Position numbers and translations under genes: made by a program. Below, piece by piece: positions 49,890-54,076 of a DNA stretch of 64,000 nucleotides. Numbering within the stretch: the first letter of the stretch is position 1; each line of letters starts with the position of its first letter. Below the pieces are notes generated by a model. The model made no database searches. It was not told the DNA's origin and saw only the letters and a program-made list of their open reading frames with translations. The DNA is from Phyllobacterium myrsinacearum (GTDB lineage: Bacteria; Pseudomonadota; Alphaproteobacteria; Rhizobiales; Rhizobiaceae), in assembly GCF_002980555.1 (NCBI RefSeq), contig NZ_PVBT01000001.1, forward strand, positions 310,001-374,000. The letters are read 5' to 3'.

Positions 49890-51707
49890 ATGACGTTCGT
49901 GCGAAATCTGATGTGGGCGCCTACAATTGGCCTGTCCTGGCTGTGGGGACTGGGTTTTTTCTATTCCATCCACGTCACCCTGACCTATGGCTGGCTCGGT
50001 TTCTTCGGTTTCGCGATCTCGAATGTTGGCGGTCTGTGGCTGTTCGGCTTTATTCTCGGCCGCAGCAAGCGTACGCCGGACCAGATCATGAAAGACATCG
50101 AGAACCGCTATGTCGGCGTCTTTCTGTTGTTCCAGATGGCGGCGCTCGTGGTGACGATTTTCGGCTTCGTCGCCTATTTGTGGCAGCCGATTGTGGGTGA
50201 GGGCGCGACAATAGGCGTTGCCTTCCTGCTTCTGGCTTCCTGCGCCATCGGGCACGCACTGTCGCTGCAGCAGATCAAGACGCTGCATATCCTCTACACC
50301 GTTGTCGGTGTTGCCGCCGGGCTCGTGCTGCTTTTCGGCCTGCGGCAGACATCGGATTACCCCGGGGTCCCGCTCCAGCAGTTCGACGGGCGTTTTTACG
50401 GGCTTGTCATGCCGACGGTGATCGGCTTCCTGCTTGGCCCATGGCTCGATATCCAGCATTGGCAGCGGGCCGTCTATATCAAACGCGAGGGCGGGTCGGT
50501 CGGCATCGCCTATGGTGCGGGCGCATTGCTGTTCTTCGGTTTCCTTCTGCTCAACGCGGCGATCGCATCGACGGTCGGCCCCATCGGCAGCATCATTTCC
50601 ATGGATGGCCTGCCGAGCGCGCAGGGTTCGGTTTCCGCGGCCGTTGTTCTGGCCGCGGAAAACGGCGCCCCCTATCTGGCGATTGCCTTTGCGATCTGGA
50701 CGATTGCGGCGCTCACGTCGACGGTCGACAGTTTCTATTGCGCGACGAACTGGTATCTGCGCGGCAAGAACATGCGCAGCAACAGCCCGCTGCTGGCGCT
50801 TATTCCCGATGGTATTGCCTCGTCGCCGTTGTGGCTGCTGATCGGCGCGACCTGGGTTGCCTATGCCGCAGTACCGGCAAACTTTTCGCTCATGTATTTC
50901 ATGATGCCTTTCGCGACGCTCTTCGTCAGCGCCTCCGCCAATCTGGTCTGCGAGGCACTGGGCGCGAAACCGAAATTCGATCCGGTCCTGAGTTTTCTCA
51001 TCGGCTGCGGATCATCGCTGATCTTCGTTCTCGGTTATATCCAGCCTGTCCCTGGCTTCCTGTTCCTGTCGCCTTTCATCGGGCTGATCGGCGCTTTGCC
51101 TGTCATCGTTGAATTGGTCGGTCCCCGTTCAAAGGCGATACCGGTTGAAATCGTCGACCAGCCTATCCGCATGATGAGCGCCGCGCCGCTGACAAACGCA
51201 TCCGGCGGCGAGGAAATAACACAATCGCATGGTTTCGATGGCGAATGGTTCGTCATGCACCTCACACCGACCTATGACGACACCAATTCGGTCGGCAATG
51301 TCTACTTCGCCAATTATGTGCGCTGGGTGGGTAAGGCGCGCGAATTGTTCTTCAATGTCTGCATGCCGGATTTCGATCTGGCGACGACACGCTTCTATAT
51401 TCTCACGCGCTCCTTCACCCATGATTACCGGCGGGAATCGAAGGAGTTCGAACAGATCAGCGTTCGCATCAAGATCGCCCGGCACAACCGCAAATTCGTC
51501 ACGCTGCAGCATGAAATCCACAGCGCAGCGCAAGGCCTGCTCGGCCATGGCGAACAGTCGCTGATGTTTGTGGACCGGGATCAGTACAATCCGCTCGATA
51601 TTCCCGGCGAAGTCATCAAGGGGTTCCTGGCTTACTGGCCGAAGGATTCTCGGCTGTCACCGAGCTATCGCCCGCCCGTTCAGGACAAGACGAAGCGGCA
51701 GGCCTGA
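49890..51707 (+). CDS. Fusion of multi-span transporter-like domain and hot-dog thioesterase
   Basis: 605 aa. Residues about 1-420 form about 11-12 membrane segments resembling sodium:solute-symporter-type proteins (QMAALVVTIFGFVAYLW, MPTVIGFLLGPWLDIQHWQRAVYI, SAAVVLAAENGAPYLAIAFAIW, STVDSFYCATNWYLRGKN). Residues about 450-590 form a cytoplasmic 4HBT hot-dog domain (MHLTPTYDDTNSVGNVYFAN, YVRWVGKARELFFN), close to the enediyne-type thioesterase pattern (TN-x-x-GNVYF/Y-x-x-YxxW). It may couple transport or membrane sensing to hydrolysis of an acyl thioester; this is inference. It stands alone, upstream of and convergent with the GGDEF-EAL gene. Confidence 0.8.
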   Translation: MTFVRNLMWAPTIGLSWLWGLGFFYSIHVTLTYGWLGFFGFAISNVGGLWLFGFILGRSKRTPDQIMKDIENRYVGVFLLFQMAALVVTIFGFVAYLWQPIVGEGATIGVAFLLLASCAIGHALSLQQIKTLHILYTVVGVAAGLVLLFGLRQTSDYPGVPLQQFDGRFYGLVMPTVIGFLLGPWLDIQHWQRAVYIKREGGSVGIAYGAGALLFFGFLLLNAAIASTVGPIGSIISMDGLPSAQGSVSAAVVLAAENGAPYLAIAFAIWTIAALTSTVDSFYCATNWYLRGKNMRSNSPLLALIPDGIASSPLWLLIGATWVAYAAVPANFSLMYFMMPFATLFVSASANLVCEALGAKPKFDPVLSFLIGCGSSLIFVLGYIQPVPGFLFLSPFIGLIGALPVIVELVGPRSKAIPVEIVDQPIRMMSAAPLTNASGGEEITQSHGFDGEWFVMHLTPTYDDTNSVGNVYFANYVRWVGKARELFFNVCMPDFDLATTRFYILTRSFTHDYRRESKEFEQISVRIKIARHNRKFVTLQHEIHSAAQGLLGHGEQSLMFVDRDQYNPLDIPGEVIKGFLAYWPKDSRLSPSYRPPVQDKTKRQA

Positions 51708-51733: not shown

Positions 51734-54076
51734 TCAGCTGGCGACCTCGTAACGGTCGCGGTCGAAGGACATGAGGCCTGCGGTCTTCTCGAACGGTTCG
51801 GCGGGGCTGAACAGGAAGCCTTGTACCTGATCGCAGCCTTCCTTTTGCAGGCAGGCGAGCTGTTCGCGGGTCTCTACGCCCTCGGCGGTGATCTTCATGC
51901 CCATGCTGGCGCCAAGGCCCATCACCGCACGGATAATGGCAAGGCTTCCCCGGTTGTGCGGCAGATCGCGCACAAAGGACTGATCGATCTTGATCTTGTC
52001 GAACGGCATCTTGCGCAGATAGCTCAGGCTGGAATAGCCGGTGCCGAAATCATCAAGCGCGATGCTTACGCCCATCGCCCGGAACTGCCGCAGCAGGGAA
52101 ATCGCCGCGACATTGGCTTCAAGGAACACGGATTCGGTGATTTCGAGTTCGAGGCGGTTGGGTTTCAGCTTGTTGGTTGTCAGGGCATCGCGCACGATGG
52201 AAGCCAGATCCGAATGACGGAACTGAATCGCGGAAATATTGATGGCCACGTGGATATCATCGGGCCAGGATACCGCTGTCTTGCAAGCCTCCTGGATGAT
52301 CCATTCCCCGAGGGGAATGATATTGCCGGTTTCTTCCGCAATCGGAATGAAGATGGCCGGAGAGATATACCCGTGCACCGGATGCTTCCAGCGCAGAAGG
52401 GTTTCAAACCCGACGGTCTTGAGCGTTATGGCCGACACGATCGGCTGGAAATGCAGAATGAATTCCTGCCGCGCCAATGCGCCGCGCAAGTCCATTGCCA
52501 GTGCCCGCTTGGCCTCGATCCGCGCATCCATTTCGACTTCGTAGAAGCGATAGCTATTCCGGCCCTCGTTCTTGGTGCGGTACAATGCCAGATCGGCGCA
52601 GCGCATGATGTCGCTGACGCTGTCCATGGGCGCAAGCGCGATGCCGATGCTGATATGAATGTTGATCTGGATACCGTCGATCCAGAAAGGCTGCGATACG
52701 CGCTGCACGAGATCTTCCGCCAGCGCCGTGGCTTCAGCCTGGCCCGCACCGGGTGCCAGAATGGCAAACTCATCGCCGGAAAGGCGCGCCACGATATAGC
52801 GGGCAGGCGATGTGCTGCGCAAGCGTTCGGCCACCTGCTTCAGCAACTGGTCGCCGATACCGTGACCGAAGCTGTCATTGACGGTCTTGAATTCATCGAG
52901 GTCGATGCAGAAAACGGCAAAACCGGTGAGGCCCGTTTCCAGTTCCTTGGTTGCCTCAGAGAGCTGATCGGAGAACAGGGTCCGGTTCGGCAGGTCGGTG
53001 AGCACGTCATAGCGGGCGAGGTAGGACAGCTTGTCTTCCGACTGTTTTGCCGCTGTCACGTCGGAACCAACGCCGCGATAGCCGCAGAACTGCCCGGCAT
53101 TGTCAAAGATAGCCTTGCCGGTCAGCGACCACCAGCGGGTTTCGCCCTTTATATTGATCGGCAAGATGTGGTTGCGGAAGGTCGTGCGGTTTTCAATGGC
53201 CTGCCAGATCGATCCGACCTTCACGGCCTCTTCGGCGTGGGACTGGTCGACCTTGAACAGTTGGGCGAAGGGCATGCCCTGCAATTGCTTGGTGGTTTTC
53301 TCGGCGATCTGTGCCAGCCGCGGCGAGGTATGCTGAAGTTTCAGATCGGCGTCGGTTTCCCAGATCCAGTCACTGGCATTCTCTTCGAAATCGTAGAGAA
53401 GCAGGCTGATAACCTCCTTCTGCTGCTCGACCTTGATCTGGTCGAGCGTGCGCATGACAATCAGGTTGCTCATGTGCACGATGGTGAAGAGGATGAACAG
53501 TGCATAGATCGCCAGCAGAATCGCGATGAAAAGAAAGAAATCCTCGCCGGTCGAGGCGAGGGCAAAGAACGAGCCGGTGATGATCGCGCCGGAATAGGCA
53601 ATGGCCGCCAGCGGCACCACGGCAACGCCGATACCCGTTGCCATCAGGCCGGCCGCCGTACAGGCGATCAGCAGCCTATGGTAAGCATCGGCTTCCAGAA
53701 AAAGCATGAGCGGGATACTGGCCAGACACAGGCCGTAACACGCGGATATGATGATCAGGTATTTTATGCCGGCGAAGCCGAGCTCCTTGACCTTCGGCAC
53801 CTTGTACCATTGCCAGCAGGCAAAGAGCGACGCGGCGGTCATGATTGTGACGATGGTGGCCAGGCTGCCCAGATACAGGCTATGTCCCCGATCCCAGAAG
53901 ACAAATGCCACCACGAACACAACGCTCATGGCGACGATGACGGTAAAGGGCGCCAGTCGCAGCGCCACATCCATCTGTTCAGCATAGACCCGCCGCTTGA
54001 CGGCAGGATTTATCGTTCCCCGCATGCCGAACATGGACCGGATAGCGTCAGGCGTATGGAAATTCGACAGTTGCAC
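51734..54076 (-). CDS. Membrane GGDEF-EAL cyclic-di-GMP protein
   Basis: 780 aa. It starts with GTG (GAGG 8 nt upstream). N-terminal 5-6 membrane helices (about 35-200) are followed by PAS (about 225-345: YDFEENASDWIWETDADL), GGDEF (about 350-510: YDVLTDLPNRTLFSDQL, FCIDLDEFKTVNDSFGHGIGD, ARLSGDEFAILAPG) and EAL (about 520-770: FILHFQPIVSAITLKTVGFE, TLLRWKHP, VAINISAIQF, LDDFGTGYSSLSYLRKMPFD, KIKIDQSFV, AEGVETREQ). EAL reads ETL, keeping the metal-binding Glu. GGDEF reads SGDEF. It probably acts as a phosphodiesterase with a regulatory or weak cyclase domain. Confidence 0.92.
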   Translation of the reverse strand: MQLSNFHTPDAIRSMFGMRGTINPAVKRRVYAEQMDVALRLAPFTVIVAMSVVFVVAFVFWDRGHSLYLGSLATIVTIMTAASLFACWQWYKVPKVKELGFAGIKYLIIISACYGLCLASIPLMLFLEADAYHRLLIACTAAGLMATGIGVAVVPLAAIAYSGAIITGSFFALASTGEDFFLFIAILLAIYALFILFTIVHMSNLIVMRTLDQIKVEQQKEVISLLLYDFEENASDWIWETDADLKLQHTSPRLAQIAEKTTKQLQGMPFAQLFKVDQSHAEEAVKVGSIWQAIENRTTFRNHILPINIKGETRWWSLTGKAIFDNAGQFCGYRGVGSDVTAAKQSEDKLSYLARYDVLTDLPNRTLFSDQLSEATKELETGLTGFAVFCIDLDEFKTVNDSFGHGIGDQLLKQVAERLRSTSPARYIVARLSGDEFAILAPGAGQAEATALAEDLVQRVSQPFWIDGIQINIHISIGIALAPMDSVSDIMRCADLALYRTKNEGRNSYRFYEVEMDARIEAKRALAMDLRGALARQEFILHFQPIVSAITLKTVGFETLLRWKHPVHGYISPAIFIPIAEETGNIIPLGEWIIQEACKTAVSWPDDIHVAINISAIQFRHSDLASIVRDALTTNKLKPNRLELEITESVFLEANVAAISLLRQFRAMGVSIALDDFGTGYSSLSYLRKMPFDKIKIDQSFVRDLPHNRGSLAIIRAVMGLGASMGMKITAEGVETREQLACLQKEGCDQVQGFLFSPAEPFEKTAGLMSFDRDRYEVAS

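What the first reader, a model, noticed from the sequence alone, without database searches (positions are those of the whole stretch)
49890..51707. Transporter-like membrane domain fused to a hot-dog thioesterase
About 420 residues of symporter-like membrane sequence are joined in one frame to a 4HBT domain with the TNSVGNVYFANY pattern of enediyne-type thioesterases. No frameshift or internal start is evident. Such a fusion suggests acyl-CoA hydrolysis linked to transport or membrane sensing.
Basis: partly seen in the sequence, partly recalled or inferred. Interest (0 to 1): 0.7.

Follow-up and report, generated by a model that had tools for sequence, protein, structure and literature searches.

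The report
Shortened symporter domain fused to thioesterase
A soil and plant bacterium carries one long gene that joins a shortened relative of sodium/solute symporters to a thioester-cutting enzyme predicted to face the cell interior; the joined form has been kept by evolution in several bacterial genera, but what it does has not been tested.

Summary
Window 49890-51707 (+) is one 605-codon frame in a Phyllobacterium genome. Residues 463-576 are a 4HBT_2 hotdog domain, closest among solved structures to enediyne-type thioesterases; Asn466 and Arg484 align with CalE7 Asn19 and Arg37 and are invariant in 14 of 14 fusions. Residues 1-412 match nothing of note in Pfam or the PDB, but their profile finds two unfused SSF (SLC5) symporters among 385 genomes and aligns with that subfamily far above reversed and shuffled controls. 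It is a divergent SLC5-like domain without the leading helix TM0; charges put the thioesterase in the cytoplasm. All 21 Phyllobacterium genomes searched have it, one with a broken frame, as do scattered other genomes of the order. Both halves are under purifying selection. A GGDEF-EAL gene lies tail-to-tail with it in one clade; elsewhere it sits behind a PKS. Most likely a membrane-tethered thioesterase served by an SLC5-type ligand or transport module. Transport, substrate and activity are untested.

The parts
49890..51707 (+). whole fusion gene, 605 aa
   Evidence: single open frame; orthologues
49890..51125 (+). residues 1-412: divergent SLC5/SSS-like membrane domain, about 12 helices, no TM0
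   Evidence: hydropathy and charge; profile hits to unfused SSF proteins; hhalign probability 98.6 with controls
50436..50468 (+). residues 183-193 GPWLDIQHWQR, end of core helix 6 and following loop, with G183, P184, D187, Q189, W191 and R193 invariant in 14 fusions; the bridging SSF proteins read GSLSDQQHWQR and GPVSDQMQWQR
50718..50732 (+). residues 277-281 STVDS, core helix 8, presumed place of the Na2 hydroxyls of SSS transporters; T278 14 of 14, S or T at 277 in 10 of 14
   Evidence: the mapping onto PutP is recalled
51126..51224 (+). residues 413-445: variable cytoplasmic linker
   Evidence: alignment; median dN/dS 0.19
51225..51629 (+). residues 446-580: 4HBT hotdog thioesterase domain (Pfam match 463-576)
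   Evidence: a low-confidence model matches hotdog thioesterases; median dN/dS 0.011
51285..51287 (+). codon of Asn466, aligned with CalE7 Asn19
   Evidence: alignment; invariant 14 of 14
51339..51341 (+). codon of Arg484, aligned with CalE7 Arg37 and with the residue that is Ala in the EspE7 R35A structure 9ccr
51734..54076 (-). convergent neighbour, 780 aa, membrane part with PAS-GGDEF-EAL; candidate functional partner
   Evidence: domains; synteny

Best explanation
It is a two-domain inner-membrane protein. Its N-terminal half is a divergent module of the SLC5/SSS kind (LeuT fold by kinship, not seen directly) that lacks the leading helix TM0; its C-terminal half is a hotdog thioesterase of the enediyne type held on the cytoplasmic face. 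Shown here by computation: the single frame, its conservation, the kinship of both halves, the invariant active-site residues and a charge pattern that puts the C-terminus inside. Inferred: the thioesterase hydrolyses an acyl or polyketide thioester (on ACP or CoA) at the membrane, and the SLC5 module binds the released acid or a related small molecule and moves it across the membrane or senses it. My single most likely version is hydrolysis coupled in place with transport of the acid, since the transporter-type motifs stay under purifying selection rather than decaying as in a mere anchor. In one clade its action may be tied to a neighbouring c-di-GMP enzyme; in another genus it may serve a capsule-lipid type polyketide pathway.
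For: One frame (20 of 21 genus genomes). 4HBT_2 at E 1.2e-13; the C-domain profile hits 5vpj, DynE7, EspE7, CalE7 and 4i4j at 2.8e-16 to 3.9e-15; N466 and R484 match CalE7 N19 and R37, invariant in 14 of 14. The N-domain profile in 385 class genomes finds, besides the window's own, only G1010 (E 7.4e-11) and G911 (E 1.6e-5), both Pfam SSF. hhalign with four proteins of that subfamily: probability 98.6, score 120, 368 columns; reversed profile 14.8; 20 block-shuffled profiles at most 50.2; ABC permease set 19.2. Nineteen positions stay invariant when the two SSF proteins are aligned with six fusions. K/R means over 14 sequences of 4.4, 3.0, 2.0, 1.7 and 3.1 in five inside segments against at most 0.93 in six outside ones. 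Median dN/dS 0.043 for the N-domain and 0.011 for 4HBT. Trees of the two halves give the same two main groups.
Against: No experiment; transport, substrate and thioesterase activity are untested. The N-domain is not recognised by Pfam SSF or by PDB sequences and shows nothing against four sets of ordinary SSF proteins. Block shuffles reached probability 69 and 83 in 2 of 20 runs, so the probability alone is not decisive; the score gap is. Two inside segments carry little charge: residues 124-127 none, residues 1-8 a mean of 0.93 K/R. The residue at the first Na2-type position is alanine in 4 of 14. Structure prediction of the whole protein failed (pLDDT 41.4). No PKS lies beside the window gene, and the PF00109 hits of this genome are in frames of 404-459 aa, none of type I PKS length.
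Confidence: 0.45

Rival explanations
1. Transceptor: the SLC5 half only senses a ligand, and its conformational state switches the thioesterase or displays it to partners, as SLC5 domains fused to histidine kinases do. The tail-to-tail GGDEF-EAL gene would be part of the same signalling unit.
For: SLC5 domains fused to cytoplasmic signalling domains are established (PMC7918813 and PMC13022988, passages). CbrA lacks PutP's Na2 residues and is driven by protons (passage); here one Na2-type hydroxyl is lost in 4 of 14 and His133, near core helix 5, is invariant. All 6 of 199 family genomes with a close GGDEF-EAL orthologue (E <= 1.7e-80 over 315 residues or more) carry the fusion, and the two genes are neighbours in every fetched locus of that clade long enough to show it.
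Against: A thioesterase is an enzyme, not a known signalling output; Pfam finds no PAS or kinase domain in the fusion. G019, G121 and G191 have no match to the GGDEF-EAL membrane-PAS part, and it is not found in the fetched loci of G314 and M. extorquens. CbrA both senses and transports, so this rival overlaps with the main reading.
Confidence: 0.3
2. Anchor only: the SLC5-like half is a decayed symporter that merely tethers a housekeeping or proofreading acyl thioesterase to the membrane.
For: TM0 is missing and recognition by the SSF model is lost. 4HBT is more strongly conserved than the membrane half.
Against: 44 positions of the membrane half, the start included, are invariant over 14 sequences as low as 31% identical, many of them in core helix 1 and at the motif sites shared with SSF proteins, and its median dN/dS is 0.043.
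Confidence: 0.2
3. The fusion is an accident of annotation or assembly.
For: None found beyond one genome, G855, with the frame broken.
Against: 20 of 21 Phyllobacterium genomes and nine genomes or records outside the genus carry it in one frame.
Confidence: 0.01

Closest known systems
Enediyne-type hotdog thioesterases (CalE7, DynE7, SgcE10, EspE7)
   Same: 4HBT hotdog domain, best solved relatives of the C-domain by sequence, same Asn and Arg at the active-site places
   Different: solved members are free proteins of 142-180 residues from enediyne pathways; this one is fused to a membrane domain, and the window has no PKS beside it
Sodium/solute symporters, SSS or SLC5, PF00474
   Same: long profile alignment with a bridging SSF subfamily; shared motifs after core helix 6 and in core helix 8
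   Different: no TM0, about 412 residues against 467-503 in the four bridging proteins, below detection by the Pfam model, extra cytoplasmic enzyme domain
SLC5/STAC histidine kinases (CbrA, CrbS, RpuS)
   Same: an SLC5 module followed by a cytoplasmic working domain in one chain (listing, passages)
   Different: hotdog thioesterase instead of STAC and kinase domains; short variable linker
Fused 3-hydroxyacyl-CoA dehydrogenase-4HBT proteins, as in G118 (L067)
   Same: a 4HBT domain fused behind another domain
   Different: dehydrogenase partner; its 4HBT_2 domain is only a weak match to the window protein (28%, E 3.3e-4)

Membership tests
SSS/SLC5 symporters (PF00474) | Pfam SSF score over the curated cut-off | tested here: not met
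   0 of 14 members match SSF
SSS/SLC5 symporters (PF00474) | homology over most of the membrane domain to accepted members | tested here: met
   hhalign 368 columns, probability 98.6, against four proteins of the L107/L108 subfamily, of which L107 and L108 were checked to be Pfam SSF; no signal against four sets of ordinary SSF proteins
SSS/SLC5 symporters (PF00474) | leading helix TM0 before the ten core helices (definition recalled) | tested here: not met
   frame opens four codons before the ATG; alignment with SSF starts at core helix 1
SSS/SLC5 symporters (PF00474) | hydroxyl residues of the Na2 site in core helix 8 | tested here: inconclusive
   T278 14 of 14; S or T at 277 in 10 of 14, A in 4; site mapping recalled
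SSS/SLC5 symporters (PF00474) | LeuT fold | tested here: inconclusive
   model of pLDDT 41.4 is unusable
SSS/SLC5 symporters (PF00474) | ion-coupled solute transport | not testable with these tools
   needs an uptake assay
Enediyne-type hotdog thioesterases | 4HBT_2 domain with these proteins as nearest solved relatives | tested here: met
   fold search on a pLDDT 60.8 model agrees but ranks YbgC-type enzymes level with them
Enediyne-type hotdog thioesterases | active-site Asn and Arg (CalE7 N19, R37; their role is recalled) | tested here: met
Enediyne-type hotdog thioesterases | free-standing protein beside an iterative PKS (recalled) | tested here: not met
   fused in all cases found; a PKS neighbour seen only in G314 and G1211
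SLC5/STAC histidine kinases | kinase domains behind the SLC5 domain | tested here: not met
   Pfam finds only the 4HBT families

The most novel reading that the evidence does not exclude
An enzyme-type transceptor: an SLC5 module whose ligand state gates an attached thioesterase, working as one unit with the convergent membrane GGDEF-EAL enzyme, so that an external or released acid is read into both acyl-thioester turnover and c-di-GMP level. This would extend SLC5 transceptors from signalling kinases to metabolic enzymes.
Probability: 0.15. Interest if true: 0.75.

Novelty: new variant of a known kind. Interest (0 to 1): 0.5.

Why it matters
SLC5 domains fused to a cytoplasmic working domain are described with kinases and other signalling domains (PMC7918813, passages). 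A conserved SLC5-thioesterase chain would be a tractable case of hydrolysis coupled to transport or sensing, and it points to a membrane module that Pfam does not recognise. I found no description of such a fusion in three full-text searches of an open-licence library, judged from their listings; subscription papers and database annotations were not searched.

Tried and rejected
Whole-protein structure prediction from 18 close sequences: pLDDT 41.4, not used for any fold claim; I glanced at its helices, with hydropathy and alignment, when I set helix limits. Searches of Pfam and the PDB with the N-half: nothing of note. hhalign against ordinary SSF sets from related genomes: nothing; kept as evidence against an easy assignment. 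For one search five of 30 SSF loci (L077, L080, L097, L103, L104) were left out as wrongly framed or odd, 25 kept. For one search I picked 18 loci (L107, L108 and 16 of the 30 that one search gave); L133, L134 and L137 then dropped out as shorter than 401 aa after the script's frame choice, 15 kept; only L107 and L108 were checked with Pfam. In one search pairs with dS outside 0.05-2 were dropped: 96, 83, 79 and 63 of 153 pairs were used for the four segments. Gene calls are mechanical and some are surely wrong. A PKS partner in the window genome was looked for and not found. Terminator-like sites lie inside coding sequence and were ignored. A paper search for the M. extorquens gene gave nothing.

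Full report
WHAT IS THERE. The window lies in a Phyllobacterium genome: 15 of 17 loci found with the protein are titled Phyllobacterium and two 'Rhizobiales bacterium', at 84-98% identity, and contig lengths tie G063 and G149, of the window's own genus, to Phyllobacterium sp. YR531 and OV277. The gene is a 605-codon frame from 49890 to 51707 on the + strand; its frame opens four codons upstream of the ATG.

C-TERMINAL HALF. Pfam gives 4HBT_2 at residues 463-576. A profile of 14 fusions finds 12 PDB sequences at E <= 0.001. The first six are 5vpj, DynE7 (two), 9ccr, CalE7 and 4i4j, followed at 2e-9 and weaker by HP_0496, YbgC-type enzymes and others. In the printed alignment Asn466 falls on CalE7 residue 19 and Arg484 on residue 37; both are invariant in 14 of 14 rows. 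Their catalytic role in CalE7 is recalled; the CalE7 paper was not held. A review passage says that two hotdog thioesterases were shown to end chains in enediyne synthesis (PMC4147253). A separate model of this domain has pLDDT 60.8. The 50 Foldseek matches shown are all hotdog thioesterases, YbgC- and CalE7-types mixed at similar E, which agrees but adds little.

N-TERMINAL HALF. None of 14 members has an SSF match in Pfam; the only match of any kind is one member to SpoIIIAC at E 0.2. The profile has no PDB match below E 0.68. Searching 385 genomes of the class with the profile gave three genomes: the window's own, G1010 (E 7.4e-11) and G911 (E 1.6e-5). Their proteins are unfused and SSF by Pfam at 1.5e-21 and 6.9e-27. 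Against four proteins of this subfamily hhalign gives probability 98.6, score 120 and 368 columns; against 15 relatives of L107 it gives 97.5 and 95. Controls: reversed profile 14.8 and 18.6 against these two sets; 20 block-shuffled profiles 27.7-50.2 against the first; an ABC permease set and the GGDEF protein's membrane part 19.2 each. Four sets of ordinary SSF proteins gave nothing, so the kinship is remote and seen only through the bridge. The alignment starts at core helix 1, so TM0 is absent. Shared marks are D...W.R after core helix 6 and T.DS in core helix 8. With twelve helices, K/R residues lie mostly in the inside segments (means 4.4, 3.0, 2.0, 1.7, 3.1; two further inside segments 0.93 and 0) and hardly in the outside ones (0 to 0.93), which puts both ends in the cytoplasm. 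The helix limits are my assignment.

DISTRIBUTION AND SELECTION. Genus: 21 of 21 genomes, G855 with a broken frame. Family sample: 13 of 199 matched, 9 of them fusions, the window genome and two more Phyllobacterium included. Order sample: 6 of 297 matched, fusions in the window genome and G314. Phylum sample: 45 of 398 matched, fusions in the window genome and G020, the other 43 in the 4HBT part. Family of G314: 2 of 20, G314 and G1211. Plasmid collection: 2 records of 72,556, one of them a full-length fusion on the M. extorquens AM1 megaplasmid. Median dN/dS in 18 Phyllobacterium-type sequences is 0.043 (N-half), 0.19 (linker), 0.011 (4HBT) and 0.10 (tail), on the 63-96 of 153 pairs with usable dS. 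Trees of the two halves agree on two main groups, one of G314, G1211, G191, G019 and G121, the other of Phyllobacterium, G137, G020, G122 and M. extorquens. This is what a single old fusion predicts; several inner forks are open, and the place of M. extorquens is unsure because of its long branch.

NEIGHBOURS. The gene at 51734-54076 (-) encodes a PAS-GGDEF-EAL protein with a membrane part, tail-to-tail with the fusion and 26 bases away. Its orthologue holds the same place in G137, G020 and G122 at 45-52% identity and in 16 of 17 Phyllobacterium-type loci; the seventeenth, L026, ends too early to tell. Other flanking genes turn over more: the upstream phosphatase gene is seen in 11 of 17 of these loci. 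Of 199 family genomes 82 matched its first 345 residues. Six do so at E <= 1.7e-80 with 44-100% identity over 315 residues or more, and all six carry the fusion; the next best is E 1.4e-45 at 31%, and most weaker ones are short PAS stretches, up to 45% identical over 60 residues. G019, G121 and G191 have the fusion but no such match in the genome; the fetched loci of G314 and M. extorquens have none. In G314 and G1211 the fusion lies downstream of a reducing type I PKS and a BioF-like enzyme, and directly in front of an SDR. G1211 has about 5 kb more between them, with a second SDR, two Capsule_synth proteins and a polysaccharide export protein. This gene content recalls the rhizobial rkp-1 region, which a passage describes as making and moving a lipophilic molecule that may be a carrier or anchor for capsular polysaccharide (PMC3557214); no rkp sequence was compared. 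In M. extorquens a response regulator and a LuxR and LuxI pair lie 3-7 kb downstream.

READING. The anatomy is firm. The function is inferred: a cytoplasmic thioesterase placed at the membrane by an SLC5-type module that is kept under selection. Coupling to transport, to sensing, or to both is open. SLC5 fusions to signalling domains are known (PMC7918813 and PMC13022988, passages; PMC5715377 and PMC9100948 seen only in a listing with the start of the abstract). I found no paper on an SLC5-thioesterase fusion in searches.

Noticed in passing
window 51734-54076 (-): PAS-GGDEF-EAL gene 26 bases tail-to-tail from the fusion; the pair is kept in Phyllobacterium and in G137, G020 and G122 while other flanking genes vary.
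   Followed up: partly
L065 19-11710; L167 2-14367: PKS and BioF-like genes upstream of the fusion and an SDR directly behind it; G1211 holds about 5 kb of extra capsule-type genes that G314 lacks between them.
   Followed up: partly
L058 17128-23793: On the M. extorquens AM1 megaplasmid a response regulator and a LuxR and LuxI pair follow the fusion; two ORFs of 554 and 557 aa before them match no Pfam or NCBIfam family, and the second overlaps the regulator's frame.
   Followed up: no
L066 4160-10230: In G064 a type I PKS is followed directly by a free-standing 4HBT protein, 33% identical over about 100 residues to the fusion's C-domain.
   Followed up: no
L067 9745-11244 (-): Another kind of 4HBT fusion: 3-hydroxyacyl-CoA dehydrogenase with a C-terminal 4HBT_2 domain.
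   Followed up: no
L061 7834-9108: A glycosyltransferase with similarity, far below the cut-off, to rifamycin-inactivating Rgt lies tail-to-tail with the fusion in G191; a like gene has the same place in G019.
   Followed up: no
G855:C5:2288546-2290364 (no window coordinates): The only Phyllobacterium copy broken into two overlapping frames, near residue 500; sequencing error or decay not decided.
   Followed up: no
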